Part shown: piece by piece, positions 14,200 through 31,867 of the stretch
Numbering within the stretch: the stretch's first letter is position 1
Layout: each line of letters opens with the position of its first letter
From: Gammaproteobacteria bacterium
GTDB taxonomy: Bacteria; Pseudomonadota; Gammaproteobacteria; UBA1113
NCBI GenBank assembly: GCA_020051015.1
Contig: JAGVJQ010000026.1
Span: 1 to 47,900, forward strand
DNA length: 47,900 nt
Reading direction: 5' to 3'
Notes under the pieces: generated by a model
Database searches by the model: none
What the model saw: only the letters and a program-made list of their open reading frames with translations
Told to the model about the DNA's origin: nothing
Made by a program: the position numbers and the translations under genes

Positions 14200-15626
14200 C
14201 TATGCCACCACACCAACTTCCCTGATTTGTTTACGAAACTGTCCTTGAATACTTTCCAACGTTTGTTGTTTTGTCTCTGGCAATAAAAATTTCGCCACCA
14301 AAAAATAGTAAATTGTAAATCCAGCAAATAATAAATAGGTATTACTAAGTGTAATTTTCTGTACTAGATCTAAAAACAATGTCGACAACAATGTTGCAAC
14401 CAATGAATTGATAAACAAACATAACGCCACACCTTTGCCTCGTACCTTAGTTGGATATAGTTCTGAAATGGCTAACCAAACAACGACACCAGGACCAATG
14501 GCAAAACAAAAAATAAAAATCAATAACCCAAATAATGACAATGATCCTTGTATCATGGGCGTTAAATGCAGTCGACTGATAAGACATAGAAATATTTCAG
14601 CTACTACAATGCCTGCTGCGCCAAATGCTAATAATCGCTTACGGCCAAAATGATCAATCAAGCTCATTGATAATAATGTCGTCAGAAAATTAAGTAATCC
14701 GATGCCCATCGTGCCAAATAAAGTAATCATGTGTGAACTAAAGCCTGCTTGTTGCAAGACTAATGGCGCATATTGCAAAAAGACATTAATGCCAGTTAAT
14801 TGATTACAAATCGCAATCGATAAACTGATAAATAATGGCATCATTAAAGCACGTGAAAATAACTCTTTCCAACCACCCTCTTCTTGATGCAAGCTTTGCA
14901 TAATTTCATTAGCTTCAGCATTAATATGGTTGACTGGCCGAATTTGATATAAAACTCGATAAGCTTTTTGTATTTGATTTTTTGCTAATAACCAACGCGG
15001 ACTTTCTGGCAATAACAACATTCCAATAAATAACACGGTATTGGGAATCAAGATAATCAGAAACATAGCATGCCAATTCCCTGAATGAGCAAATACTAAA
15101 TCAATAATATAAGCCGCTAAAATACCCAATGTTAAAAATAGTTGGAAGACGGTAACGCCTTTGCCGCGAATTTCTGGCGGTGCGATCTCAGAAATATACA
15201 ATGGAATCGCAACAGAGGTCATACCAACAGCAATACCTAATAACAGGCGAGCAATAAGTAAGGTATAAAAAATATGTGCATTAATTATAATAAATACACC
15301 ACCAAAAAAATTAAGCTAGCTGCAATAATCATGCGTCGACGACCATAATGATCGGCTAAAAAACCTGTGACTAACGTCCCTAATAAACTACCACCCAAAA
15401 CAGCCCCGACAATGATGCCCATTTGGGTGTCAGTTAATGGAATCGCTTGCTTAATAAAGAGTAATGCGCCAGAAATGACGCCAATATCATAACCATATAA
15501 AATGCCACCCAAACCGGCACAGACAATTAACATAATTACCATTAATTTTATAAGCATTGGATTGCGTGGTGCTGCATTAGCAAGTTCAGTAGAAAACAAT
15601 GGTTGCTCCTTATTATTTAATTCCAT
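14200..15626 (-). pseudogene. Sugar-porter MFS transporter, frameshifted
   Basis: Two reading frames together make one major-facilitator sugar porter of about 475 residues. The first (15285-15626, 113 aa) has LGGILYGYDIGVISGALLFI and the loop motif LADHYGRRRM. The second frame (14200 up to about 15304) carries LLGIAVGMTSVAIPLYISEI, PESPRWLL, DHFGRKRLL and PETKQ. The frame changes at a run of seven T's read on the minus strand (15304-15310); one more T would restore a continuous protein. This may be a true mutation, an error in a homopolymer, or ribosomal or transcriptional slippage. The start overlaps the upstream lipoprotein gene by 14 nt, implying coupled translation. Confidence 0.88.
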
Positions 15627-16428
15627 AATCCGTATCTTGAACTATCACGGCATTAGGGTCTGCCGCTGTTGGGGTCGATATACTGGCTGGCATAATACCA
15701 TCCATTGACATCACTGAGCCAGATTGACGTTGATATGGCGCAACCATATCGGGTCTTGAGTAGTAATAAATATCACTTTGTCCCGCGGCAAGGCCGCTTA
15801 CACCTGAGCCACCAAGTACTTCGGCTTGCGCAAGTCCGGTGGTATTAACAAAAATAGAGTTGGCTATCACACATTTAGCATTTAAACGTGAAGTTCCAGT
15901 TGCAGTCGCATCTAGCCGATTTACGGCACCCGCTAAAAACATATACGCAGACCCATTTACCGTCGCGGCAAAATGATCAACATAGATATTTTGAATATCG
16001 ATACTGCCTGTACCGGTGTAATAAACACGATGTAATGGTGTAGACGTATAAATGGTCACTTTTGCCCGTACACCAGGATTATATTCATATCCCTGGTCAA
16101 AAAATAAGGTCAACGTATTATTTTTCACAAAATCATGGGTGTAATCGACCAACGCCGAATCGCCAGCAACGGTCACCGAAGCGACACCGTTTGGATTAAT
16201 ATAGGGATTAGTATTCTGAACAACCTCGACCGTATAAGGACCATTGATTGCGATGCTATCAAAACTGGGAAAAGCTTGCGCACTAGAGGTTTGGCGTCCC
16301 GTTAATGGCAGCTCTGTTTTGGTGGAAAAGGTTTTCTCAATGAACTGCTCGGTATTCTGCTTGACAGTACAGCCAAATAGCAATACGCTAGCCAAGCATA
16401 AAATAAGATATGGTGATTTTTTAATCAT
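15613..16428 (-). CDS. Lipoprotein with GIN (DUF2807) domain
   Basis: A 271-aa protein with a lipoprotein signal ending in LLFGC (Cys about residue 20), so it is likely lipid-anchored in the cell envelope. From about residue 53 (FDSIAINGPYTVEVVQ) it shows the repetitive beta-helix pattern of GIN/DUF2807 'auto-transporter adhesin head' proteins, with HRVYYTGTGSIDIQNI, VNGSAYMFLAGAV and ATGTSRLNAKC. Function in this family is not established; binding or adhesion is usually suggested. The ATG has a GAGGATGTAG ribosome site. It overlaps the sugar porter by 14 nt, and the two are probably co-transcribed. Confidence 0.85.
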   Translation of the reverse strand: MIKKSPYLILCLASVLLFGCTVKQNTEQFIEKTFSTKTELPLTGRQTSSAQAFPSFDSIAINGPYTVEVVQNTNPYINPNGVASVTVAGDSALVDYTHDFVKNNTLTLFFDQGYEYNPGVRAKVTIYTSTPLHRVYYTGTGSIDIQNIYVDHFAATVNGSAYMFLAGAVNRLDATATGTSRLNAKCVIANSIFVNTTGLAQAEVLGGSGVSGLAAGQSDIYYYSRPDMVAPYQRQSGSVMSMDGIMPASISTPTAADPNAVIVQDTDYGIK

Positions 16429-16670: not shown

Positions 16671-19040
16671 ATGGATATTATTGAACGAATTGCCATTGAA
16701 ATTGGTGCCAAGAATAACCAAATTACCGCAACAGTTGCGTTACTCGATGAAGGTGCGACTGTACCTTTCATTGCACGATATCGTAAAGAAGCCACAGGTG
16801 GCTTAGATGACACTCAATTACGTACACTAGAAGAACGTTTAAAATATTTACGTGAACTAGAAGAACGACGTGCCGCTATTCTTAAAAGCATTAGTGAACA
16901 AGAAAAACTGACGCCTGAATTAGAACAAGCAATTAACGAAGCGGATAATAAAACTCGTTTAGAAGATTTATATTTGCCCTATAAACCCAAACGCCGTACC
17001 AAAGCTCAAATCGCTAAGGAAGCTGGGCTTGAACCATTAGCATTAGCATTATGGGAAGATGCAACACTTAATCCAGAACAAATTGCAAATGACTATATTA
17101 ATGCCGACAAAGGTGTGGCAGATGGTAAAGCCGCACTTGATGGTGCGCGCCAAATCTTGATGGAGCGTTTTGCTGAAGATGCCGAATTACTCGCTAAATT
17201 ACGTGATTATCTCTGGGAAAAAGCGGTTATCACGAGTAAAGTTGTCAGCGGTAAAGAAACCGAAGGACAGAAATTTAGTGATTATTATGAATTTAGTGAA
17301 TCAATCAATAAAATTCCTTCGCACCGTGTATTAGCTATTTTACGCGGCCGACGTGAAGGTATTTTAAATATCGCTGTTGAAATTGAACAACCCGCTGAAC
17401 GTATATTTAATGCATGTGAAATGCTGATTGCTAGTCAAACTAAAATTAATGCTATTGCTCGTGACACACATCCTGCCGATAACTGGCTGCAAGATACGAT
17501 TCGTTGGACATGGAAAGTAAAATTACAACCCCAATTAGAGCTCGAATTAATCAATAATATTCGTGAAACAGCGGAAGCCGAAGCGATTCGTGTATTTGGT
17601 TTAAACTTAAAAGATTTATTACTTGCAGCTCCTGCTGGTATGCGCGCTACGATGGGATTAGACCCTGGCTTACGTACTGGCGTTAAAGTAGCGGTGGTTG
17701 ATAATACAGGAAAACTACTCGAATATACCGCGATTTACCCACATGTCCCACAAAAACAATGGGATGCTTCATTAAAGACATTAGCTGCTTTATGTAAAAA
17801 ACATAATGTTGATTTAATCAGTATCGGTAATGGCACCGCTTCACGTGAAACAGATCAATTAGCCATGGAGTTAATTAAAAATAATCCTGAATTGAAGATG
17901 ACAAAAATTGTCGTATCAGAAGCTGGCGCATCAGTTTATTCAGCTTCAGAATTAGCAGCCAATGAATTTCCTGATGTTGATGTTTCATTCCGTGGCGCCG
18001 TTTCAATTGCTCGTCGTTTGCAAGATCCATTAGCTGAATTAGTAAAAATTGAGCCAAAATCAATTGGCGTTGGTCAATATCAACATGATGTTAATCAAAC
18101 TGAATTAGCACGTAATTTAAATAATATTGTTGAAGATTGCGTGAATGCTGTTGGGGTAGATTTAAATACTGCATCGGTTCCATTATTAGCACGCGTTTCT
18201 GGCTTGAATGAAACTATTGCCCGTAATATTGTTGAGTTTCGTAATGCCAATGGCGCCTTTAAAAATCGTCATCAATTAAAGAAAGTCGCTCGTCTTGGCG
18301 ATAAAACGTTTGAACAAGCGGCTGGCTTTTTACGCATTAATAATGGTGAAAATCCACTTGATGCCTCATCTGTTCACCCAGAAGCATATCCAGTAGTTGA
18401 ACGCATTATTGCAAAAGCAAGTCGTGATATTAAAGCTATCATTGGTGATACAACGTTCTTGAAGAGCTTAAAAGCAGCTGATTATGTCGATGACGTATTT
18501 GGTATTCCAACCATTACTGACATTATTGCCGAGTTAGATAAACCAGGCCGTGATCCACGTCCGGAATTTAAAACAGCAACCTTCAAAGAAGGTGTAGAAA
18601 CACTTGCCGATTTAAAACCAGGTATGATTTTAGAAGGTGTAGTAACCAATGTTACCAACTTCGGTGCCTTTGTTGATATCGGTGTGCATCAAGATGGTTT
18701 AGTTCATATTTCTGAATTAGCGCATAAATTCGTGCAAGATCCACGCAGTGTTGTAAAAGCGGGAGTCATTGTTAAAGTCAAAGTGATGGAAGTTGATCAA
18801 GCAAGAAAACGTATTTCTTTATCGATGAAATTGGAAGATACACCGCAAGTAAAAATTGCTAATAACAAACCAGCTGCTAGAGATAATGCAACTGATCGTC
18901 CACGCCATCAATCGGCAGGCAGAAATGCAGGACAAAATAAACCTGCACCCGCGCCACAAAAACCAGCAAAAACTGAAGCTGAATCAATCATGGGTAATGC
19001 TTTTGCTGATGCGTTAGCGAAGTTGAAAGAAAAAGCGTAG
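16671..19040 (+). CDS. tex: RNA-binding transcription accessory protein Tex
   Basis: A 789-aa cytosolic nucleic-acid-binding protein. The N-terminal helical domain starts [18 protein letters not shown] and contains [18 protein letters not shown] YqgF/RNase H-like domain ([16 protein letters not shown]) begins near residue 328. Helix-hairpin-helix motifs follow ([17 protein letters not shown], about 502-518), then a C-terminal S1 RNA-binding domain at about residues 648-720 ([20 protein letters not shown]). A basic, Pro/Ala-rich tail ends the protein. Length and domain order match Tex of other gammaproteobacteria. The exact cellular role is not settled; it affects transcription and RNA handling. 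Confidence 0.96.
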
Positions 19041-19047
19041 ATGTCAT

Positions 19048-19104
19048 GCCCCTCATTATGTCTGTATATCAACATGATTTAATTTCAGTACGTAATGATG
19101 GGGC
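19048..19104. repeat. Distant inverted repeat after tex
   Basis: GCCCCTCATTATG (19048-19060) is the imperfect reverse complement of 19091-19104. With a 30-nt loop it could fold past the tex stop codon, but no T-run follows. It is the first element of the 445-bp gene-free stretch 19041-19485, which also holds the MITE-like element and a GC-rich hairpin. Confidence 0.4.
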
Positions 19105-19168
19105 GAAGGTTGTAATAAATCGTGCATGCTTTTAATGAGAGCTCTCGGTTAAACTCATCAATCAATAT

Positions 19169-19321
19169 TGATCTATCGTAGGGGCGTATTGCATACGTCC
19201 ATTTATCAAATATCAAAAATTATTTGCTTTGTACAATATTTCAAACATCACTGTACCAATATTCAGCCAGATCGGTGATTTGGAAAGATGGGCGTATGCA
19301 ATACGCCCCTACGTTAGATCA
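19169..19321. mobile_element. 153-bp MITE-like element
   Basis: Terminal inverted repeats of 34 bp (19169-19202 and 19288-19321) match at 32 of 34 positions, starting TGATCTA. Each contains a full copy of the GTAGGGGCGTAT palindrome (19178-19200 and 19290-19313, opposite orientation). The 85-bp interior is AT-rich and non-coding. No obvious target-site duplication was found and no transposase is present, so 'MITE-like' describes structure only. Confidence 0.65.
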
Positions 19322-19447
19322 GTAAACGTAGCCCGGTGTGAATGTGTTTTGAGAATCAAAAATCATGGAACCTTGATAATCAAGGAAAGTGAAACACGTT
19401 TGTTAACGCGAGAAACCTTGGATCGGTGGTTTATCGATGCATGGATT

Positions 19448-19471
19448 CCCTCCCCCGGTAAAGAGGGAGGG
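19448..19471 (-). terminator. GC-rich hairpin after the thaumatin-like gene
   Basis: CCCTCCC (19448-19454) and GGGAGGG (19465-19471) form a 7-bp stem with a 10-nt loop, 15 nt past the stop codon of the minus-strand gene. There is no T-run, so termination is uncertain; it may instead be another dispersed repeat. Confidence 0.4.
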
Positions 19472-19485
19472 AAAGATAACCCATC

Positions 19486-22400
19486 CTATGGAGGTGTTGG
19501 TATTAAGGCACCACCAGGACAGAAAGTAATCGTGTAATTTGACGTATTAAATTCACTTGCTGGCACAGAGCAACCACCTGAGCCTTTTGCTTGGCCAGGT
19601 CCCCCAGCACAGTCAGGACAGGTAAAGGTACTGCTTGGGTCATCGTATGGATAAGTATATGCAGAAGGAACTGCCGTTTTTAACCAAGCTAAAACATTAG
19701 GCGCGCCATTACCATTAAATTGTAACAAATTATTCCATTGGGTCGGGCTGCTAGGTGTGGTTGCAGGACATGCTTCTACCAGCGGAGCCGCTGGAACACC
19801 AACGCCTGTCACGCCATCCCAATTAACACAACCACAACATTGATTAGTACCTTGAGGGTTGTTGTAACAAGAGGGAATACCCACATCACACTTGTATAAA
19901 TCCGTTACGGTTGCTGAAGGGAAACTAGACATCCCGGCAGCACTAGTACAATTAAAGTTAGGGCTTGCACCACTACCATTGCTAGTACCGCAAATTTGAT
20001 CGCCGGTCCAATACCCCGCAAATACCCCACATTGTGAGCGGAAGCCATTAGTACTTGGGTTAAAGGTTAAACCACAAACCGTACCCGGAGAAACCATGTT
20101 ACAAGCAGCGTTGGTAGTACAACCATTAGGCTGGTTAGCATCATACAATACAAAAGTATACTGATTAGGCGACACACCAGTAGGCGAAGCTGGGGCTGTA
20201 AAAGACCATGTCGCCGCACTAGCACCATTTGGGGTTGCCGCCGTGATACCGCCACCACCACAGATATACCCATTATTGCCGTGCTGGGTAGTTTGATACG
20301 CGGTCAAATTATTGGGAACCATACTAATGGGTATATTGGCACCATTGATGATGGAAATATCATAAAAGTCTGAGCTAGCACGACTCAATGTGAACTCAGC
20401 CAATGCATTGGGTGGCGTAAAACCAGTTCCTGGGAAACAAGCCCCAGTACTATTGGGAACATTAACCCCTGCTGTAACTGTCGTTGATGCACTGGTGCAA
20501 TCAGCAGTTTGACATAAACCACCCGTCGAGCAGCCAGTACGTGCACTGACGTTACCACTCCAAACGGTATTTTTGTCGTTAGCGACTACCTGGTTATATT
20601 CAGGAATAGTTACCGTGGTCGATGCGCCCGATGCCAACGCATAGCCACCAACCGGTGTCATACTATTCCAGAAACATAATTTAGAATTTGTCTGGACGTT
20701 AGTTGTCACACAGGTCGCACCATTAGGACAATCCGCATTAGTATTACAAATCGAAGAGGTTCCTGGTGCAATATGGGGATTGGGTGGCGCGCTAGATGAA
20801 GCCGCATTATTTGAAGCCCCGCCATTGAGACCAATCCAGATGGTGGTACCAGGACAACTATTGGTAAAGGTCAAGGTACGAGAAGAAACTGCCTGGTTCG
20901 TAATTTGAAAGGTAACAGGAAAGGTTGATTCTAGTAATGTACTACCGCCGGCATTAGGAATAATTAATGCTAAATTGCGAACAGAGCCTACCGCATTTGC
21001 TGTAATGGCTGCACTGATAGAACAATTCCCATTTGGTGGAACAATGCCATTACAAGTATTAGTAAATACTGTACTAATCAGCCCAGCTCCCGCAGGAGTA
21101 CTATCAGGGAATGTACCAAACGCAACACCCGCTTGGTTAAATGCAATAGCTTGGGTGGCATCTGAATTATGGATACCATAAATCAGTGTTTGTGTTTCGC
21201 CAACCGCCATATCTTGCGGCGCGGGTTCAGCCACAAAACTTAAAGCAGACGTCAACACGCTATAAGTAAGCTGTTGGGTGATAGTCGGCGATACACTGGA
21301 GGTTGAAGCCACATTCAAGTATTGAATAACATTGCCGGCAGTTGAGGTTGCTGCTGGTGCAGAAATATTGACATTGAAATCACAACTTTGTCCATTAGTT
21401 AATGACGCAAAACTTGATCCATTATAACAAGGGGTATCAGTACCTGGAATCGGTGCATAAGTAATGCTGGTGGTACTCACCCCCGTATTACTTGCATTAT
21501 TAGCAATGCTAATACCGGTTAACTGCGCTGGCATGACATTAGTATTTTGCACTTTAAACAATAATTGTTGTGCGGTTCCGTCAATAATTTGACTATTCGG
21601 CGCTGAAACTTGCGAGAAGATCAGGCCTGTTCCTGCCGTAACATTTACTGAAAAAGTAGGAATAAACGCAATTCGATAACTGTAATTAGGGCCAAAATTC
21701 ACATTCAACGCATGGACAACGGGGTTACCCACTGTTGTTGGTGTACTGTTGGTTACAACATAAACATTAATATCGCAGGTTCCATTATTAGCTGGTACTA
21801 CTCCACCACAACTGTTGGTGAATGTCACCGCATCATTGGCTGTTACTGCATTGGGGGTGACCGCTTGGAATGCGATTGCAGCAGTACTAGTATTTTGTAT
21901 CGTGTAAGTAAACGTTGGGGTCGAGGACTGTGTGTTGACAGGGATGGATGTTGTCTTTGGTGCCGGTTGTGCCGGAACAAAAACTAATGCCGTAGAGCTG
22001 GAAACGGTAATCGCAAATTGAAGCGGTGCAATCAAGTGTTTAGTACCTTGATATTGAATATCCAGCGCCTGGAAAACTGGCGTTGTGACTGAGATATCAC
22101 TATTTGCTTTCAACGTAACCGATACCGTACAAGTGCCTACACCTGGCGGGACACTGCCACCACAAGAGTTAGTTAATGCTACAACGCTATCATATTGTGA
22201 TGGAGTAACAACTGGCGTAATTGCAATCGGTGCACCAGAAGAATTTGAAAGCGTATATACTAACGGCGTACCCGTTTCACCTGGGGTGAGGTTCGGTACT
22301 AATGGATTAGGTGGCACAAAGCTTAAATCAGCTGCGACGACATTAATGGTAAATTCAACCGGTGTTGCATTTAATACTGAAGTGAATGGATGTGTCGTTC

Positions 22401-23091
22401 CATAATTAATCGTCATGCTGACTGAATCAAATTCTGATACGGTTACCGTATGTGCAATTGCTTGCACACTAATGGTACAGACTTGACCTGCCCCTATGCT
22501 ACCAGCACAAGGATCGCTAGTAATCGTCGTTGTCATATAATTCGTATCACTTGGACTTGCACTTGCTTGATAGACAGCGGCAATCGACGATGTATTTTGG
22601 ATTTGATATGTCAGCGTAGTGGCATTGCCAGAATCTATGGTCTGTGGAGTGGTAGGTTGGCTAGTAAAAACTAAAGTTGCTGCGGGTGCTGAGCCAGTAA
22701 CACTAAAAGTAATTTGTGCAGTTAAATCTGCTTGACGGGCGTTATTTAATACATTCAATGTTTCATTGACCGTACCTGTAGCAGTACCGGCATTAATTTT
22801 AACTATTACATTACAATCACCACCAGCAGGTACTAAACCATTACAGCTATCGCTTACTTGATTTATAACCTCAGTACTACCGGTATTGGGTAGCACTTCT
22901 GGAATAATTTGTTGTGGGGCAGTTGGTACATTATTATGCACCGTATAAGTTAATGTTTGCGTCCCATCGACTGGAAGATCTTGTGCCGTAGGGATAGACG
23001 TGAAGCTTAATGTTGGTTGGCTAGCATAAGCTGACGAGACAGCCAAACAAGAAAGAAGTGTGAATAGCAAAAATTGCTTTAATATGCGCAT
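19486..23091 (-). CDS. Secreted six-Ig-repeat protein with thaumatin-like domain
   Basis: The ATG at 23091 (AGGGA ribosome site 6 nt upstream) gives 1201 aa; a TTG two codons earlier is rejected. A signal peptide ends near AYA (residue 23). Six Ig-like beta-sandwich repeats of about 110-125 residues follow, each with an NSCxGxVPP...C-type cysteine pair (C83/93, C195/205, C310/321, C428/439, C555/570, C680/690). From about residue 738 the C-terminus is thaumatin-like: LTFTNSCPGTTIWIGL, SARTGC, PPNALAEFTL, DFYDISIINGANIPISM, CCGC and YTYPYDDPSSTFTC (about 1146-1158), ending YTITFCPG. At about 460 residues it is roughly twice the plant size, with Cys-rich insertions. Secretion or surface location is inferred; the activity is unknown. 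Confidence 0.9.
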   Translation of the reverse strand: MRILKQFLLFTLLSCLAVSSAYASQPTLSFTSIPTAQDLPVDGTQTLTYTVHNNVPTAPQQIIPEVLPNTGSTEVINQVSDSCNGLVPAGGDCNVIVKINAGTATGTVNETLNVLNNARQADLTAQITFSVTGSAPAATLVFTSQPTTPQTIDSGNATTLTYQIQNTSSIAAVYQASASPSDTNYMTTTITSDPCAGSIGAGQVCTISVQAIAHTVTVSEFDSVSMTINYGTTHPFTSVLNATPVEFTINVVAADLSFVPPNPLVPNLTPGETGTPLVYTLSNSSGAPIAITPVVTPSQYDSVVALTNSCGGSVPPGVGTCTVSVTLKANSDISVTTPVFQALDIQYQGTKHLIAPLQFAITVSSSTALVFVPAQPAPKTTSIPVNTQSSTPTFTYTIQNTSTAAIAFQAVTPNAVTANDAVTFTNSCGGVVPANNGTCDINVYVVTNSTPTTVGNPVVHALNVNFGPNYSYRIAFIPTFSVNVTAGTGLIFSQVSAPNSQIIDGTAQQLLFKVQNTNVMPAQLTGISIANNASNTGVSTTSITYAPIPGTDTPCYNGSSFASLTNGQSCDFNVNISAPAATSTAGNVIQYLNVASTSSVSPTITQQLTYSVLTSALSFVAEPAPQDMAVGETQTLIYGIHNSDATQAIAFNQAGVAFGTFPDSTPAGAGLISTVFTNTCNGIVPPNGNCSISAAITANAVGSVRNLALIIPNAGGSTLLESTFPVTFQITNQAVSSRTLTFTNSCPGTTIWIGLNGGASNNAASSSAPPNPHIAPGTSSICNTNADCPNGATCVTTNVQTNSKLCFWNSMTPVGGYALASGASTTVTIPEYNQVVANDKNTVWSGNVSARTGCSTGGLCQTADCTSASTTVTAGVNVPNSTGACFPGTGFTPPNALAEFTLSRASSDFYDISIINGANIPISMVPNNLTAYQTTQHGNNGYICGGGGITAATPNGASAATWSFTAPASPTGVSPNQYTFVLYDANQPNGCTTNAACNMVSPGTVCGLTFNPSTNGFRSQCGVFAGYWTGDQICGTSNGSGASPNFNCTSAAGMSSFPSATVTDLYKCDVGIPSCYNNPQGTNQCCGCVNWDGVTGVGVPAAPLVEACPATTPSSPTQWNNLLQFNGNGAPNVLAWLKTAVPSAYTYPYDDPSSTFTCPDCAGGPGQAKGSGGCSVPASEFNTSNYTITFCPGGALIPTPP

Positions 23092-23139: not shown

Positions 23140-23176
23140 TAATCGCAGTCAATGAATTTTATTGAGTCTGCGATTA
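23140..23176. other. Hairpin between Ig-barrel and thaumatin genes
   Basis: TAATCGCAG (23140-23148) and CTGCGATTA (23168-23176) pair perfectly, with an additional CAAT/ATTG inner stem. It lies in the 117-bp gap between the two co-directional minus-strand genes and could be a partial terminator or mRNA-processing structure. A TTTTATTT run follows on the plus strand, but no plus-strand gene precedes it. Confidence 0.45.
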
Positions 23177-23208: not shown

Positions 23209-24513
23209 TTACCTGATCAAATAACTCAAACCAAACAACCAAGAATTTGATTGCATATCAAATTTAATTGGTTTTTGTAAGGTAATATTATTATTGGATA
23301 CTGTACCTGTTTCGGCATCGCCCGGATCGGTATAAAGATAACGGAAAGATAGTTCCAAATTAGAACCAATTGGTAATTTTACGCCACCACCGACATCATA
23401 GGCAAAATTCAGTCTTAAGTTGCTTGGCATATCTAATTCACCACCACTAATACCTGGCTCAGCCGTTTCAGAATATTGAATACGATTATACGCACCACCA
23501 ACACCACCTTCAGCAAAGAAGGTTAAGCCATGCCACAATGGATGTAAATCAACTTCGCCATTTAGTAATAAACGTGCACTATTCATATCAGCTTTATAAC
23601 GATAATTATTAAACTGAGGTAATTGATATTGATAAACTTGGCCGGTACGCTCAAAATTATCATTAAAGAAGTCTACGCCCAGTCCAACCCCATGAATGAT
23701 TCCACCATTAGGATTCAATACAAAATCGTATGACACCCCAACACCTGGAATAAATGTCGTACTATGATCGCTTCCTACTAGTGAATCAGTTTCATATTGG
23801 TTGAATACAATGTTTGATTTACTGGCGTTAATATTACTCCAACCAGCATAAACATTAATTTGCGCGCCAGATGTGTTATAAGCAGCTTGCGCATCTTTTA
23901 ATGGAATCATTGCATTAGACTGAGATGAAACAACGATCACACCAGGTGTCGTTTGTGATGTCGCTGTTGTTGACTGCACTGCAGTTTTATTGCTTGATTT
24001 CATAGTTGGTTGTGAGGCTGTCGTCACCGTTTTGGTTTTAGTAGTGGCAGATTTTGAAGCGGCTGTTGTTTTATTTATTTTATTGGTTGGTGTTGTCGAC
24101 ATCGCTACCGGCACAGCAAGCACATCGAATTGAATTGGACGAGAACGCAACTCAGTATTGGATTCGCCATAATTGATAATTAATGCAGTATTCATGAAAC
24201 CGGAATTAGCTGGGGCATGTATTGTTAACCTGATATGGCAACTTTGATCGGGCGCAACCAAACCGGAACAATCATTAGTCGCCGCCCAATATTTAGGATT
24301 ATCGTGGGGCCCAACGTCAATATTATTTAATTTAACTGGTTGATTACCGCTATTGTAAATTGTATACATTAACACCTGACTACTGTCGGTGGTCATTGTC
24401 TGCGCAATTGGTTGCGAACTAAATATCAATTCTTGCGCCGCGGCAAACCCTGAAGAGACATATAACGTCGCTAAAACGAAAGACATTATTGAAATTCTAT
24501 TAACTGCCTTCAT
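23209..24513 (-). CDS. Outer membrane beta-barrel with N-terminal Ig-like domain
   Basis: A 434-aa exported protein (signal peptide to about residue 26). Residues 27-133 form one Ig-like module (ELIFSSQPIAQTMTTDSSQV, then DCSGLVAPDQSC with C82 and C92) very like the repeats of the downstream gene. A Thr/Ser/Lys-rich linker (about 135-200) leads to an OmpA/Omp25-type beta-barrel (about 216-434) with alternating aromatic strands such as GLTFFAEGGVGGAYNRI, LRLNFAYDVGGGVKLPI and LELSFRYLYTDPG, ending SWLFGLSYLIR. The barrel would anchor it in the outer membrane. The shared module suggests that it and the neighbouring Ig/thaumatin protein work or assemble together; this is inference. Confidence 0.85.
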   Translation of the reverse strand: MKAVNRISIMSFVLATLYVSSGFAAAQELIFSSQPIAQTMTTDSSQVLMYTIYNSGNQPVKLNNIDVGPHDNPKYWAATNDCSGLVAPDQSCHIRLTIHAPANSGFMNTALIINYGESNTELRSRPIQFDVLAVPVAMSTTPTNKINKTTAASKSATTKTKTVTTASQPTMKSSNKTAVQSTTATSQTTPGVIVVSSQSNAMIPLKDAQAAYNTSGAQINVYAGWSNINASKSNIVFNQYETDSLVGSDHSTTFIPGVGVSYDFVLNPNGGIIHGVGLGVDFFNDNFERTGQVYQYQLPQFNNYRYKADMNSARLLLNGEVDLHPLWHGLTFFAEGGVGGAYNRIQYSETAEPGISGGELDMPSNLRLNFAYDVGGGVKLPIGSNLELSFRYLYTDPGDAETGTVSNNNITLQKPIKFDMQSNSWLFGLSYLIR

Positions 24514-24714: not shown

Positions 24715-26244
24715 TTAATGCCCCAGCGCCGCAGCATCGAAGGCTTTCAGTTTTGGTGGTTGCAACAACATAACCAATGGAATCATGAATAAAAAGCCCC
24801 AAAACGTTATCCAATATGAATCAACGAATGCAATCATACTGGCCTGGTTATTCAACATATACCCTAAAACTGGTGGCGTATTGGGATTATTCATCGTTAA
24901 ATTAGCGCTATTTAACCATTGATAAAATGCTGGATTGCCAAGATAAATATGTCCTCCCAATACATTCCAGTTAATTTGCGTCTCTTGCGTAACAATCGTA
25001 CTTAAAATTGAAATACCAATCGAACTACCCATACTACGACCAAAACTGAACATACCCGATCCTTCCGCCGTATGTTGCTGATTGATCGTACTTAATGCTA
25101 GCGCAGATAAGGGTACGAAAATTAATCCCATACCCAGTCCTTGTATAACACCGCTCCAAATTAAATATGGCTCGCTGATATACAAGCTGGATTGTGTCAT
25201 TACATACGTCCCTGCCGCTGATAAAAGTAATCCCACAATAATCAAACCACGTAAATCAACTTTGCCCATTAGCTTTGCCACGATCATCATTGAAAATGCA
25301 CTAGCAAATCCTCGCGGAGCCATAATTAAACCAGTTGTTAGCACTGGGTAATTTAAGAAATTTTGCATCATGATGGGTTGCAGCGTTAATAAACCAAAGA
25401 CGATCATGCAATAAAACGTCAGCAAAATTGTTGCCATAGTAAAATTGCGATCTTTAAATAAATGTAAATTAATAATATTACGAGGATAATGCCAACCTCG
25501 TACTATAAAATAACTGAGCGTATAAGCACTAATGATAAACAAAATCAAAATACCGTTCGAATCAAACCAGTTATACTGATTACCTTCATCAAGGAAAATT
25601 TGAAAGGCACCAATTCCAACTGCCATTAAAAATAACCCCATCCAATCAATGAATGGTTTGCTGCGTGGTGTTTCCGTAATAAATTTTAACGTCATAAAAA
25701 ATGCCATAATACAAACCGGCACATTCACATAAAATATCCAACGCCAATTTATACTTTCAGTAATATAGCCACCAATAGTTGGACCCAATACTGGCCCCGC
25801 CATAATACCGATACCCCATATTGCCATCGCCTTACCTTGTTCATGAGGCGGAAAAGTATCGCGTAAAATATATTGCGACATAGGCACCAATGTCGCACCG
25901 AAAATACCTTGCAAAGTGCGGAAAAATACCATTTGCGGTAATGTCACTGCCATACCGCATAACATGGAACTAATTAAAAAACCGACAATATTTATTAATA
26001 GTAATCGTCGTCGACCAAGTCTTGTAACGAGAAACCCTGTTAATGGCATACAAATTGCTGAAGAAACAATATAAGAAGTTAAAATCCAGGTGATTTGATC
26101 AGTATTGGCACCTAATGCCCCCATCATATTAGGTAATGCGACATTAACAATCGTCATATCAATCACTTCAACCACGGCCACTAGCATCACTGAAATAGTG
26201 ATCATCCAGCGCTCGAATGGATCAGTGATATAGGTATGGGTCAT
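24715..26244 (-). CDS. emrB: DHA2-family drug efflux MFS transporter (EmrB-like)
   Basis: Inner-membrane proton-driven exporter of 509 aa with 14 predicted helices. The conserved N-terminus FERWMITISVMLVAVVEVID and TIVNVALPNMMGALG is typical of EmrB, as are TRLGRRRLLL and GPTIGGYITESINWRWIFYVNVP. I chose the ATG at 26244 (CGGAG ribosome site). A TTG-initiated extension to 26298 would add 18 residues encoded by the palindromic repeat at 26283 and lacks support. It is paired with the adaptor gene upstream; together with an outer membrane channel such as TolC (encoded at 36434) they would form a tripartite pump. Confidence 0.93.
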   Translation of the reverse strand: MTHTYITDPFERWMITISVMLVAVVEVIDMTIVNVALPNMMGALGANTDQITWILTSYIVSSAICMPLTGFLVTRLGRRRLLLINIVGFLISSMLCGMAVTLPQMVFFRTLQGIFGATLVPMSQYILRDTFPPHEQGKAMAIWGIGIMAGPVLGPTIGGYITESINWRWIFYVNVPVCIMAFFMTLKFITETPRSKPFIDWMGLFLMAVGIGAFQIFLDEGNQYNWFDSNGILILFIISAYTLSYFIVRGWHYPRNIINLHLFKDRNFTMATILLTFYCMIVFGLLTLQPIMMQNFLNYPVLTTGLIMAPRGFASAFSMMIVAKLMGKVDLRGLIIVGLLLSAAGTYVMTQSSLYISEPYLIWSGVIQGLGMGLIFVPLSALALSTINQQHTAEGSGMFSFGRSMGSSIGISILSTIVTQETQINWNVLGGHIYLGNPAFYQWLNSANLTMNNPNTPPVLGYMLNNQASMIAFVDSYWITFWGFLFMIPLVMLLQPPKLKAFDAAALGH

Positions 26245-26282
26245 AATCTCGAAACTCCGAAAGATGACGTGGAGATCTATTT

Positions 26283-26308
26283 GTAGGGACGTATGCAATA
26301 CGCCCCTC
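26283..26308. repeat. GTAGGGGCGTAT palindrome copy 5 (between emrA and emrB)
   Basis: GTAGGGACGTAT (26283-26294) pairs with ATACGCCCCTC across a 3-nt loop. It lies inside an operon, between the emrA stop and the emrB start, where it may lower downstream expression or stabilise the upstream message. Confidence 0.8.
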
Positions 26309-26313
26309 TGAAT

Positions 26314-27378
26314 TTATTTTTTATAGGTCTTAAACGTATTTACTGTTACTTCACTACTTGATCCTGCTCGCAAAGGATATTTAGGATCAATATCAGTAAT
26401 AATGATTTTTACAGGGAATCGTTGTGTTACTTTCACCCAATTGCCGGTTGCATTTTCTGGTGGTAATAATGAAAAAATAGAACCACTACCACGACTAATA
26501 CTATCAATATATCCTTTAAAATGTACGCCAGGATACATATCAATACTGATCGTTACTGGTTGCCCTGGTTTCATCCGTGCCATCTGTGTTTCTTTATAGT
26601 TAGCGTATACCCACCACTTTTGACTTTCTACTAATTGGAATACTGTTTGCTGCGCGGTAATCATGGTACCAACACGCACATTATCAAAGTTAGTAATATA
26701 GCCATCTGCTGGCGCATAGATACGAGTAAAACTTAAATTTAATCTAGCTGATTTAAGCTCGGCACGAGCCATTTTAATTTGTGCATTACGATTACCAACA
26801 TCACCTAATGTTTTTTGCGCTTGAATTAATTGATTTTGTGTTGCGATTAATTGGGCTTGCGAACTTTGTAGTTGCCCTAATGCATCATCACCACTAGCAA
26901 CCGATGACTGCCCTTTTTGCACTAATGCAATCGTGCGATCATAGTTTTTTTGATTCACGGTTAATTCTGCTTTGGCTGCATTAACATTGGCGACGGCCAC
27001 ATTAACACCGGCTATATCCGCTTCCATTTGTTGAATCGCTAATTTCAAATTAGCTGCTTGTTGATCAACCACGGCTTGAAATGGTTGTGGGTCAATTTCA
27101 AATAATAATTGATTTTTCCGCACAAATTCATTGTTATGAACAAATACTTCTGAAACAGGACCACTCACTTGAGCGGCTTCATAGATATAGTGTGCATTAA
27201 CATAAGCATCATCGGTGTATGGCCAATATTTTTGATAAAGAAAATAACCATACACACCCATACACAAGGCAATGGCGATAGCAATCCAAATCATGGTATT
27301 CCGTTTATGATTGCTCGGTGTTCCAGGTGGCAACTCTATTTGTGGCGCCTCTGGTTGTGGGGTCAATGTATCAGTCAT
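26314..27378 (-). CDS. emrA: HlyD-family periplasmic adaptor (EmrA-like)
   Basis: A 354-aa membrane-fusion protein linking the inner membrane exporter to an outer membrane channel. One N-terminal membrane helix (about residues 28-48) is followed by the EmrA hallmark YTDDAYVNAHYI, a lipoyl-like half (VSGPVSEVFVHNNEFVRKNQLLFEIDP), an alpha-hairpin (about 85-205) and the closing half (LNLSFTRIYAPADGYITNF). The C-terminal beta domain contains MKPGQPVTISIDMYPG. The start has an AAGGA ribosome site. The gene follows deoC after 13 nt, so it is probably transcribed with the nucleoside-catabolism genes and precedes its partner emrB. Confidence 0.94.
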   Translation of the reverse strand: MTDTLTPQPEAPQIELPPGTPSNHKRNTMIWIAIAIALCMGVYGYFLYQKYWPYTDDAYVNAHYIYEAAQVSGPVSEVFVHNNEFVRKNQLLFEIDPQPFQAVVDQQAANLKLAIQQMEADIAGVNVAVANVNAAKAELTVNQKNYDRTIALVQKGQSSVASGDDALGQLQSSQAQLIATQNQLIQAQKTLGDVGNRNAQIKMARAELKSARLNLSFTRIYAPADGYITNFDNVRVGTMITAQQTVFQLVESQKWWVYANYKETQMARMKPGQPVTISIDMYPGVHFKGYIDSISRGSGSIFSLLPPENATGNWVKVTQRFPVKIIITDIDPKYPLRAGSSSEVTVNTFKTYKK

Positions 27379-29680: not shown

Positions 29681-31867
29681 ATGTTTCGTTCCCACTCTAA
29701 ATCATCTAACAATGTTAATTCACAGTTACAAGAAACCCTCTATGATACTGCTATAAGAGCTATTAATACAGACAATCTGAATCTCTTTATAGCCACTATT
29801 AATAATTCTTCTTTCAATTTGGCTCTACAAAAAGAGGGGCAAACCATAGCTTCGTTTGTTGCTAAAAAACAACGCTGGAACATGCTCGCGTTTTTAGCCA
29901 ATACCTACTCTGATCCCGAAGGGAAATATGGCTTCCATGACGCCTTAACTATGGTTGCAGAAAAAAGTCCCGCAGAATGGACCGAAAGTCATACTTCAAT
30001 AAATCAATGGTCACTGGCATTAACCTTAGCGCAAAATGGCCCAGATCACGAAGAGCAACATCCTTTAATAGCAGTATTGCATGAAGCTGTACGTTACCAT
30101 CAGTCGCCCGACCAGCCAATCATTAACGTACTGGTGGAACATTTAATCTATCGAGGAACACCAGTTACCGCTTATGCCCTGGCAACTGCTTTATCTACTG
30201 CAAATCTTGCGACGGTTAATCTATTATTGCAGGCTTCAGAAGTTGATTTCGCTCTTAAAAAACGTCCAGTTATCCTTGCTGATGGTACCTCTTATGAATC
30301 CATTGAGGCTTTCCTAATACAACAAAACAAACAAGATAATTTTATTCACGCTGTAAATTATAACCAACGCTTGCTCTCAGCATTCACAACTAGCACGAGC
30401 AATAGCAATTGGTATGATGGTACAACAACCATTACTTATCTTCATATATTTAACCGTTTACTATGCCGTAAAAATCTTGCCCGTGCATTAACGACTAAAG
30501 AGATTGAACAATGTTCAACAAAAGATAATAAAAAAATTCTCGCTGATATTTTTAAAAGAATTTGTTCTAATCTTCCTAGTTATGATGCAAGAAAAGTTTA
30601 TATTGAGAAAATGGAAAACTCAGCATTAGCTAAACTATTTAACAAACCACGAAATCCTGGACTTGATAATGCTTTTTTGCGAAATACAACGAAAACTTGG
30701 TCAGATGTTCAAACATTTTGTGGGCAACAACTAGGAGTTTTTTACTCAAAACCTATTGATATGGAAATAAAAACTGATGACGACGTTGTCGTATGTGATC
30801 TTAGTAAGGAACCAGAGGCTGACAAAATTACTACGCCAGTGGAGATAGATCTCAGTAATTGTCCAGCCACCTCTACTATGGCATCTAATTCTAAAATAGA
30901 ATCACCTGAAGAAATTGAACGTAATTACCAATTTAGAGAGTCAAACAATATTACCATCACTCCTAAAGGATCCGTTCATACCTCTAGAGGATCTTTTATA
31001 AAAGAGCTTTATCAAACACTAGAAAACACTGCTGAATCTAATGATAATTCTTATTATAAGAATTTATTTGAGAGGAACCAATTAGAATTACAAAACTATA
31101 TCAATGAAAAAATAAATAACTATCAAAGCAGTCTTAAATCATGTAATGAGGCACTTACTTATTTACAGAAACTTAATGGGAAATTATTAGGAAAATATTT
31201 TCGTGATCTTATCCAGAAAAATATCGCTCGTTTATCAGAGCACTTATTTAGTACTGCATTATCTCTTCAAGCAAAAGATACTAATGGCTCAACAAGCAAA
31301 GTTCAATATCTAGCAACCGCTATTAATAGTGGAGTAAATATTACAGAAAAAATCGTTTCGGTGAATGACAATTCGCAAAATGTTCTTAACCACTTATTAG
31401 GCTTGATTATAACAATATATAATGATCATACCAAAGAGAAGCACGCTAGAAATAAACAGGCAGCAAATGCTAATTTTAACATAACATCCTCTTTAATAGC
31501 CTTTTCTGACGATCGTCAAGCATCTTATGATACCCGATTACATGTTATTCACACAAATTGGCAGATATTAATACTTTTTATTGAAAAGTGGCCTACCAAC
31601 AATACGGCTGATATTATGGCATTAAAATCTTTTCAAACAGCAATATCTCGTTTTCCTTTAGATGAATATACAAAATTTTATAAAAATTTTGATGCAAATA
31701 TAAGTCTTATAGCTAATAGCATTAAGACACTACTTAAAAACAAACTTGCAAATTCATTACCTGAAGATATCAGTTCTAAGGCCGTCGCACATGGACAATT
31801 TAGATCTTCATTTAAGCAGTTGAAAACTAATAATCAAACGGAAAAAGATAACACTTATTCTCCTTAA
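29681..31867 (+). CDS. Large helical protein, effector-like, unknown function
   Basis: A 728-aa protein, no signal peptide and no membrane helix, with a good GAGGT ribosome site. The first 240 residues have the rhythm of degenerate ankyrin-like helical pairs: LYDTAIRAINTDNLNLFIAT, LIAVLHEAVRYHQSPDQPII, and TAYALATALSTANLATVNLL. The middle (about 370-440) is polar and probably disordered. The rest is helical, with possible coiled-coil (LYQTLENTAES...YYKNLFERNQLELQNY). The gene is AT-rich with no close neighbour on its strand. Large, soluble, helical proteins with ankyrin-like N-termini are typical of secreted effectors of intracellular Legionellales, but nothing here proves export. Confidence 0.8.
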   Translation: MFRSHSKSSNNVNSQLQETLYDTAIRAINTDNLNLFIATINNSSFNLALQKEGQTIASFVAKKQRWNMLAFLANTYSDPEGKYGFHDALTMVAEKSPAEWTESHTSINQWSLALTLAQNGPDHEEQHPLIAVLHEAVRYHQSPDQPIINVLVEHLIYRGTPVTAYALATALSTANLATVNLLLQASEVDFALKKRPVILADGTSYESIEAFLIQQNKQDNFIHAVNYNQRLLSAFTTSTSNSNWYDGTTTITYLHIFNRLLCRKNLARALTTKEIEQCSTKDNKKILADIFKRICSNLPSYDARKVYIEKMENSALAKLFNKPRNPGLDNAFLRNTTKTWSDVQTFCGQQLGVFYSKPIDMEIKTDDDVVVCDLSKEPEADKITTPVEIDLSNCPATSTMASNSKIESPEEIERNYQFRESNNITITPKGSVHTSRGSFIKELYQTLENTAESNDNSYYKNLFERNQLELQNYINEKINNYQSSLKSCNEALTYLQKLNGKLLGKYFRDLIQKNIARLSEHLFSTALSLQAKDTNGSTSKVQYLATAINSGVNITEKIVSVNDNSQNVLNHLLGLIITIYNDHTKEKHARNKQAANANFNITSSLIAFSDDRQASYDTRLHVIHTNWQILILFIEKWPTNNTADIMALKSFQTAISRFPLDEYTKFYKNFDANISLIANSIKTLLKNKLANSLPEDISSKAVAHGQFRSSFKQLKTNNQTEKDNTYSP

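What the first reader, a model, noticed from the sequence alone, without database searches (positions are those of the whole stretch)
19486..23091. Bacterial Ig-repeat protein carrying a thaumatin-like (PR-5) domain
The C-terminal 460 residues carry the linear pattern of plant thaumatin-like proteins: ARTGC, a PPNALAEFTL block, DFYDISIINGANIPISM, a CC pair, PYDDPSSTFTC and a final TFCPG. These are placed after six disulfide-containing Ig-like repeats and a signal peptide. Thaumatin-like proteins are best known from plants, fungi and animals as carbohydrate-binding or antifungal proteins. A long surface stalk ending in such a head suggests an adhesin, a glucan-binding tool or a toxin. The domain is about twice the plant length, with Cys-rich insertions.
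Basis: partly seen in the sequence, partly recalled or inferred. Interest (0 to 1): 0.72.

Follow-up and report, generated by a model that had tools for sequence, protein, structure and literature searches.

The report
LegT-type thaumatin protein with barrel partner
This is a real bacterial relative of plant thaumatin-like defence proteins, akin to a little-studied family called LegT, and it is encoded right behind an outer-membrane barrel protein, an arrangement seen in many related bacteria that suggests the two work together in the cell envelope.

Summary
The 1201-residue protein has a signal peptide, six Ig-like repeats with two Cys each, and a 464-residue enlarged thaumatin domain (PF00314, 59 bits; hhalign 99.2% to plant thaumatins over 98 columns). 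The REDDD cleft is partly kept (N-E-D-N-D). It is a distant relative of LegT (NF045527), a Legionella family labelled "Dot/Icm effector". New here: an outer-membrane beta-barrel gene lies directly upstream, same strand, in the window and in 61 of 74 related loci (58 of 68 Legionellaceae, 3 of 6 elsewhere; four more cut by contig ends), against 2 of 560 other ORFs in the stretches searched. Of 62 barrels 31 match the peptidoglycan-binding SPOR domain; the window's barrel carries instead an Ig module like the stalk's. Signal peptide, paired Cys and barrel point to an envelope or surface glycan-binding system rather than an injected effector. Against this: a published list calls LegT a Dot/Icm substrate, and some relatives near the window lack the barrel. 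Verdict: new variant of a known kind.

The parts
19486..23091 (-). LegT-related thaumatin-like protein gene, 1201 aa, stop included
23023..23091 (-). Sec signal peptide, residues 1-23 (MRILK...AYA); cleavage site by eye
   Evidence: sequence; simple rule-based finder
22678..23010 (-). Ig-like repeat 1, residues 28-138
22330..22674 (-). Ig-like repeat 2, residues 140-254
21988..22326 (-). Ig-like repeat 3, residues 256-368
21628..21987 (-). Ig-like repeat 4, residues 369-488
21244..21624 (-). Ig-like repeat 5, residues 490-616
20884..21243 (-). Ig-like repeat 6, residues 617-736
19489..20880 (-). enlarged thaumatin domain, residues 738-1201
20674..20748 (-). first Cys-rich insertion (residues 782-806), DX-module-like
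   Evidence: PF01666 18.5 bits, below its cut-off of 25; its four Cys are aligned in 29 to 37 of 60
19948..20121 (-). second Cys-rich insertion (residues 991-1048), placed by eye
20344..20397 (-). cleft block E899, D911, N916 (D in zeamatin)
23209..24513 (-). partner candidate: outer-membrane beta-barrel protein, 434 aa, directly upstream on the same strand (117 nt gap)
   Evidence: PF13505 36.1 bits, cut-off 28.7; Adr-like E 5.7e-10, under that model's cut-off; adjacency in relatives
24106..24429 (-). Ig-like domain of the barrel protein (residues 29-136), like the stalk repeats (33% identical to repeat 6)
   Evidence: choice_anch_D E 2.5e-4, under its cut-off
23212..23901 (-). beta-barrel domain of the partner (residues 205-434)
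23140..23176 (-). hairpin of 14 pairs between the two genes, no T-run after it
   Evidence: (z -1.84; 8 of 200 shuffles fold as well)

Best explanation
The gene encodes a LegT-related thaumatin-like protein that is exported by Sec, folds with disulfides outside the cytosol, and works with the outer-membrane beta-barrel protein encoded directly upstream. The barrel sits in the outer membrane with its N-terminal domain (SPOR in many relatives, an Ig module here) in the periplasm. The Ig-stalked thaumatin protein is held at the envelope or cell surface with the help of that partner, and its head binds a glycan of the surroundings, perhaps of a protist, algal or fungal wall or coat. Shown by sequence: thaumatin membership, Ig repeats, signal peptide, frequent barrel neighbour, change of two of the five cleft residues. 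Inferred: co-expression, physical contact, position, topology, glycan binding rather than cleavage, and the target.
For: Thaumatin domain. LegT model E 8.5e-46 over residues 516-1195; 60 of 60 proteins in A4, window included, match both LegT and PF00314. Barrel directly upstream, same strand, in 61 of 74 LegT-type loci with at least 800 bases upstream, and in the window; only 2 of 560 other stop-to-stop ORFs of at least 150 aa in the 92 stretches match the same profile. Nine genes over the PF13505 cut-off in the host genome, this one included. Of 20 relatives scanned one by one six pass the curated LegT cut-off (L073, L114, L121, L123, L129, L132), and all six have the barrel. Barrel adjacency needs at least 6 changes on the family tree for 59 rows with and 10 without. 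Partner distances correlate, Mantel r 0.56 over 59 pairs, maximum of 2000 permutations 0.14. At E 0.01, OMP_b-brl in 56 and SPOR in 31 of 62 barrels.
Against: No structure, localisation or binding data. The rows nearest to the window by tree path (L058, L061, L060, L062) have no barrel upstream, and three of these four have no Ig Cys motif. L066, L099, L108 and L130 have the motif but no barrel; 7 of 60 barrel-linked proteins have no such motif. The window's own Ig profile finds only 10 of 81 LegT-type ORFs, the window included, so the N-terminal parts are diverse. A periplasm-facing N-terminal domain of the barrel (usual OmpA-like topology, recalled) fits a periplasmic position as well as a surface one. 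Common descent alone could give the distance correlation. LegT is in a table of selected Dot/Icm substrates in PMC2824747 and was tested for injection in PMC2475511.
Confidence: 0.5

Rival explanations
1. It is an injected Dot/Icm effector, as the LegT family name says: delivered into the host cell, where the thaumatin head acts on a host target.
For: NCBIfam name of the matching model; the host has two DotI/IcmL genes over the Pfam cut-off and a DotG/IcmE-like protein (E 8e-103 but 345 bits, under the 750-bit cut-off); LegT in the table of selected Dot/Icm substrates of PMC2824747; 33 of 45 Leg fusions moved in PMC2475511 (passage; whether LegT is one of them is only in a figure that is not held).
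Against: Signal peptide and 38 Cys besides the one inside it; barrel upstream also of the six proteins that pass the LegT cut-off; little room for a C-terminal tail: at most 20 residues after an F-[CL]-[PAG] end motif in 49 of the 54 A4 proteins where it was found, not found in 6; LegT-type genes without a DotI hit in G069 (82% complete), G377 and G520. An N-terminal reporter would mask a signal peptide (inference); the paper adds that fusions that failed in that form also failed as C-terminal fusions.
Confidence: 0.2
2. It is a freely released, type II-secreted glucan-binding, glucan-cutting or antifungal protein, and the barrel neighbour serves something else.
For: Signal peptide and paired Cys; GspD in the host over cut-off and in 23 of 24 tested Legionellaceae with PF00314.
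Against: G001 (96% complete) has the gene pair without a GspD hit at E 1e-60, and G105 has a gene fragment without one; GspD is also in 16 of 20 Legionellaceae without PF00314; the third acidic cleft position is N in 52 of 60; the barrel neighbour stays unexplained.
Confidence: 0.2
3. It stays in the periplasm and binds the cell's own peptidoglycan or another envelope glycan together with the barrel protein, as a structural or stress protein.
For: SPOR, known as a peptidoglycan-binding domain, in 31 of 62 partners; no surface-sorting signal was recognised in the family scans of the window protein.
Against: The long stalk and the kept cleft residues look more like reach and outside binding (inference); the window's own barrel has no SPOR match.
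Confidence: 0.1

Closest known systems
LegT family (NCBIfam NF045527; lpg1328 of L. pneumophila)
   Same: N-terminal repeat part plus enlarged C-terminal thaumatin domain; match over residues 516-1195, E 8.5e-46
   Different: 156.8 bits, far under the 1200-bit equivalog cut-off; six Ig repeats; another order of the same class; partner barrel with an Ig instead of a SPOR domain
Plant PR-5 / thaumatin-like proteins (PF00314)
   Same: Same domain family; motifs ARTGC, LAEFTL, YDIS, CC, YPYDDPSSTFTC, FCPG
   Different: 464 against 207 residues, 26 against 16 Cys, two Cys-rich insertions, REDDD reduced to N-E-D-N-D
Small outer-membrane barrels (PF13505; Adr model NF052636)
   Same: The partner's barrel domain
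   Different: Linked to a thaumatin gene; carries SPOR or Ig N-terminal domains; under the Adr cut-off
Type B bacterial thaumatin-like proteins (L085, L110, L117, L140, L143, L152, L153)
   Same: PF00314 matches, in Legionellaceae and in one other phylum
   Different: Domain at the N-terminus, about 300 residues by eye, no Ig stalk seen; separate clade with SH-aLRT 100

Membership tests
Thaumatin family PF00314 | Score over the curated cut-off | tested here: met
   59.1 against 27.4 bits
Thaumatin family PF00314 | Three-domain thaumatin fold | not tested
   Structure prediction busy, then switched off; only profile-profile support, 99.2% over 98 columns
Plant-type TLP (PR-5) | REDDD acidic cleft | tested here: not met
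   Arg position 847 is N (R in 2, K in 1 of 60); third acidic position N916 (N in 52, D in 3 of 60); E899, D911, D1150 kept. Which plant residues make up REDDD is recalled, in osmotin/zeamatin numbering.
Plant-type TLP (PR-5) | 16 Cys in about 200 residues | tested here: not met
   26 Cys in 464 residues; the plant figure is from PMC3048497 (passage)
LegT equivalog NF045527 | 1200-bit cut-off | tested here: not met
   156.8 bits: a relative, not the equivalog
LegT family in the wide sense | Significant match over the thaumatin domain and last repeats | tested here: met
Dot/Icm effector | Delivery by the Dot/Icm system | not testable with these tools
   Host has DotI/IcmL over cut-off; signal peptide speaks against
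choice-of-anchor D / ASH Ig repeats | NF012200 or ASH model over cut-off | tested here: inconclusive
   17 of 60 A4 proteins match NF012200 at E 0.001 and 9 of 60 ASH at E 0.01; the window's LegT-type protein matches neither; its barrel protein matches NF012200 at E 2.5e-4, under the cut-off

The most novel reading that the evidence does not exclude
LegT proteins are misfiled as injected effectors. They are the exported half of a two-gene outer-membrane system in which a small beta-barrel, anchored to peptidoglycan by a SPOR domain or to the stalk by a copied Ig domain, holds a stalked thaumatin lectin at the envelope of protist-associated bacteria.
Probability: 0.4. Interest if true: 0.65.

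Novelty: new variant of a known kind. Interest (0 to 1): 0.5.

Why it matters
In the papers found here, thaumatin domains of Legionella are listed without a function. A recurrent barrel neighbour gives a testable mechanism, questions an effector label used in annotation, and shows the pair outside Legionellaceae. If the head binds protist or fungal glycans it would be a new class of bacterial adhesin built on a plant-defence fold.

Tried and rejected
Recent transfer from plants: the LegT-type domains form one clade (SH-aLRT 93, not starred) with sequences from another phylum at its base; only three plant proteins and no amoebal, fungal or animal ones were in the tree, so the origin is left open. 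Mobile-element carriage: no match in plasmids or phages or viral contigs (a pattern scan). Lipoprotein anchoring through C15: this column is Cys in only 4 of 60; not favoured. Co-occurrence with type II or Dot/Icm systems: neither separates genomes with and without PF00314. Structure prediction and fold search could not be run. My signal-peptide finder is a crude rule: 56 of 71 LegT-type ORFs positive, and it misses plain cases such as L071. The Ig profile was built from the window's repeats and its barrel's Ig domain, so its match to these is by construction; the independent sign is choice_anch_D.

Rows dropped before counts: of the 92 stretches searched hold a LegT-type gene. Four of these (L067, L103, L106, L151) were set aside because under 800 bases lay upstream. 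The remaining 74 include three fragments without barrel (L068, L149, L150); without these the count is 61 of 71. L010 and L096 lie in two frames and were counted as loci. L008 is the same locus as L069 and was not used. The other 14 stretches hold type B genes (L085, L110, L117, L140, L143, L152, L153), L074 (looked at), weak matches (L112, L147, L148) and three not looked at further (L141, L145, L155). A4 holds 60 proteins, window included, out of the longer LegT-type ORFs; A3 holds all 61 barrels plus the window's. The Mantel set dropped 3 of 62 pairs for short domains. Searches used 60 hand-picked genomes: 24 of the 72 Legionellaceae with and 20 of the 68 without a PF00314 match, the window's order, and five more.
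Full report
What is there. The finding is on the minus strand: ORF 23091 to 19486, 1201 residues. It has a signal peptide (read from the sequence; rule-based finder), six Ig-like repeats with one Cys pair each, and a 464-residue C-terminal domain with 26 Cys. The domain passes the Pfam Thaumatin cut-off (59.1 against 27.4 bits), finds plant thaumatin-like proteins in the PDB (best 1.2e-8; with a three-row profile 1.1e-15) and aligns with plant proteins by profile comparison at 99.2%, over 98 columns of its first half. It is the only such gene found in the 2.5 Mb genome, which is 88.7% complete.

Who else has it. PF00314 matches were found in 5 of 90 relatives, in 2 of 11 genomes of the same order and in 7 of 369 genomes sampled from the class, the window's genome counted in each. 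In the family that contains G051 it is in 72 of 140 genomes. I take that family to be Legionellaceae because loci titled Legionella sp. and Legionellaceae bacterium fall at identical coordinates in two of its genomes. In the phylum of a Deltaproteobacteria-titled genome it is in 5 of 46. The genes that I looked at fall mainly into two types: the LegT type like the window, and a type B with the domain at the N-terminus, separated in the tree with SH-aLRT 100. The window protein matches the NCBIfam LegT model at E 8.5e-46, well under that model's own cut-off of 1200 bits; all 60 proteins of A4, window included, match it at E 0.001. In the tree the window and its genus mate G001 lie unresolved near the base of the gammaproteobacterial LegT-type clade (quick method).

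The partner. In the window the gene directly upstream on the same strand (24513-23209) encodes a signal peptide, one Ig-like domain like the stalk repeats (pairs among these seven domains are 17 to 36% identical; this one is 33% identical to repeat 6), a Ser/Thr/Lys-rich linker and an outer-membrane beta-barrel (PF13505). A profile built from this barrel finds a homologue immediately upstream, same strand, in 61 of 74 LegT-type loci with at least 800 bases of upstream sequence: 58 of 68 in Legionellaceae and 3 of 6 elsewhere. Only 2 of the 560 other stop-to-stop ORFs of at least 150 aa in the 92 stretches match, and the host genome has 9 genes over the PF13505 cut-off, this one included. Of the 62 barrels, at E 0.01, 56 match OMP_b-brl, 50 the Adr model and 31 the SPOR domain. 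The window's barrel is the only one of the 62 that matches the window's Ig profile, but that profile contains its own Ig domain; the independent sign is choice_anch_D, found in this one barrel of 62. Of 20 relatives scanned one by one, six pass the curated LegT cut-off, and all six have the barrel upstream. On the tree, 59 rows with and 10 without the barrel need at least 6 changes. Partner distances correlate with r 0.56 over 59 pairs, maximum of 2000 permutations 0.14, which common descent alone could also give.

The exceptions matter. L009 and L154 (the other phylum), L058, L060, L061, L062, L066, L099, L108 and L130 have no barrel upstream although sequence is there. L058, L061, L060 and L062 are the rows nearest to the window by tree path. 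L058, L060, L061, L009 and L154 also lack the Ig Cys motif, so stalk and barrel may go together there; L066, L099, L108 and L130 keep the motif and do not fit that pattern. Seven of 60 barrel-linked proteins lack the motif. The window's Ig profile finds only 10 of 81 LegT-type ORFs: the N-terminal parts are diverse, and calling all of them Ig stalks goes beyond the evidence.

The cleft. By alignment E899 (60 of 60), D911 (59 of 60) and D1150/D1151 (60 of 60) are kept. The Arg position is N847 in the window and R in 2 and K in 1 of 60; the third acidic position is N916 in the window and N in 52 of 60, D in 3. The assignment of the five plant residues is recalled, in osmotin/zeamatin numbering; the existence and role of the REDDD cleft are from passages of PMC3048497. 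Two of five cleft residues are therefore changed in the window, and both are changed in nearly the whole family, so binding is more likely than a plant-like enzymatic role (inference).

Export route. The host has a type II secretin GspD (494 against 351 bits), two DotI/IcmL genes over the Pfam cut-off and a DotG/IcmE-like protein whose score is under that model's cut-off (345 against 750 bits). Over 60 hand-picked genomes: GspD is over cut-off in 23 of 24 Legionellaceae with PF00314 and 16 of 20 without; DotI in 24 of 24 and 19 of 20. In the window's order, of nine genomes without PF00314, GspD is over cut-off in 2 and DotI in 8. G001 has the gene pair with no GspD hit at E 1e-60; G069 has the pair without DotI and with only a partial GspD match, but is 82% complete; G105 has a gene fragment, DotI and no GspD; G377 and G520 have the gene and GspD without barrel and without DotI. 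Neither export system tracks the gene closely.

What is in print. Searches of the held library. LegT (lpg1328) appears as "Thaumatin domain" in the table of selected Dot/Icm substrates of PMC2824747 (passages) and as a thaumatin motif in a protein of unknown function in PMC4256840 (passages; its footnote mark was not explained in what I saw), which also lists lfa0766, llo0044, lmi1344 and lha2013. PMC2475511 (passages) made a TEM1 fusion of LegT and reports 33 of 45 Leg fusions as translocated, adding that fusions which failed with TEM1 at the N-terminus also failed with it at the C-terminus; the result for LegT is in a figure that is not held. It also reports that LegT-GFP was not detectable by immunoblot in yeast. 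PMC6617341 (passages) deals with type II secretion in Legionella; thaumatin does not occur in it (listing). Lpg1327 is said to have no predicted function in PMC12457610 (passage); whether it is the barrel I could not tell. None of the listings and passages that I saw mentions a barrel partner of LegT.

Reading. A signal peptide, Cys pairs throughout and a recurrent outer-membrane neighbour point to a protein that works in or on the envelope. The SPOR domain in half of the partners suggests a link to the periplasm and peptidoglycan; in the window an Ig domain stands in its place, which suggests contact with the Ig stalk of the thaumatin protein. I therefore favour a two-gene envelope or surface system with a glycan-binding head, at 0.5, over the effector reading at 0.2 and free secretion at 0.2. 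Fold, contact, position and ligand are not shown.

Noticed in passing
23140-23176: Hairpin of 14 pairs between barrel gene and thaumatin gene without a T-run; fold z-score -1.84. Could tune the ratio of the two products or be an intergenic repeat.
   Followed up: partly
L085, L110, L117, L140, L143 (Legionellaceae), L152, L153 (other phylum): A second bacterial thaumatin-like type with the domain at the N-terminus, separate clade.
   Followed up: partly
29681-31864: 728-residue protein without Pfam or NCBIfam match over cut-off; in a genome with Dot/Icm genes it could be an effector candidate.
   Followed up: no
24715-27378: EmrAB-type efflux pair (MFS permease and HlyD-type adaptor) upstream of the barrel gene on the same strand, about 200 bases away.
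   Followed up: no
L060, L061, L062: These relatives lie downstream of a gene that looks by eye like maltooligosyl trehalose synthase, with a different N-terminal part and no barrel.
   Followed up: partly
15616-16428: Putative lipoprotein that resembles by eye the one directly upstream of the LegT-type gene in L108; not compared by a tool.
   Followed up: no
18001-22500: G+C is higher over this gene (0.43-0.45 in 3-kb steps) than in the rest of the window (0.35-0.42); coding bias of a Thr/Ala/Gly-rich protein or a sign of acquisition.
   Followed up: no
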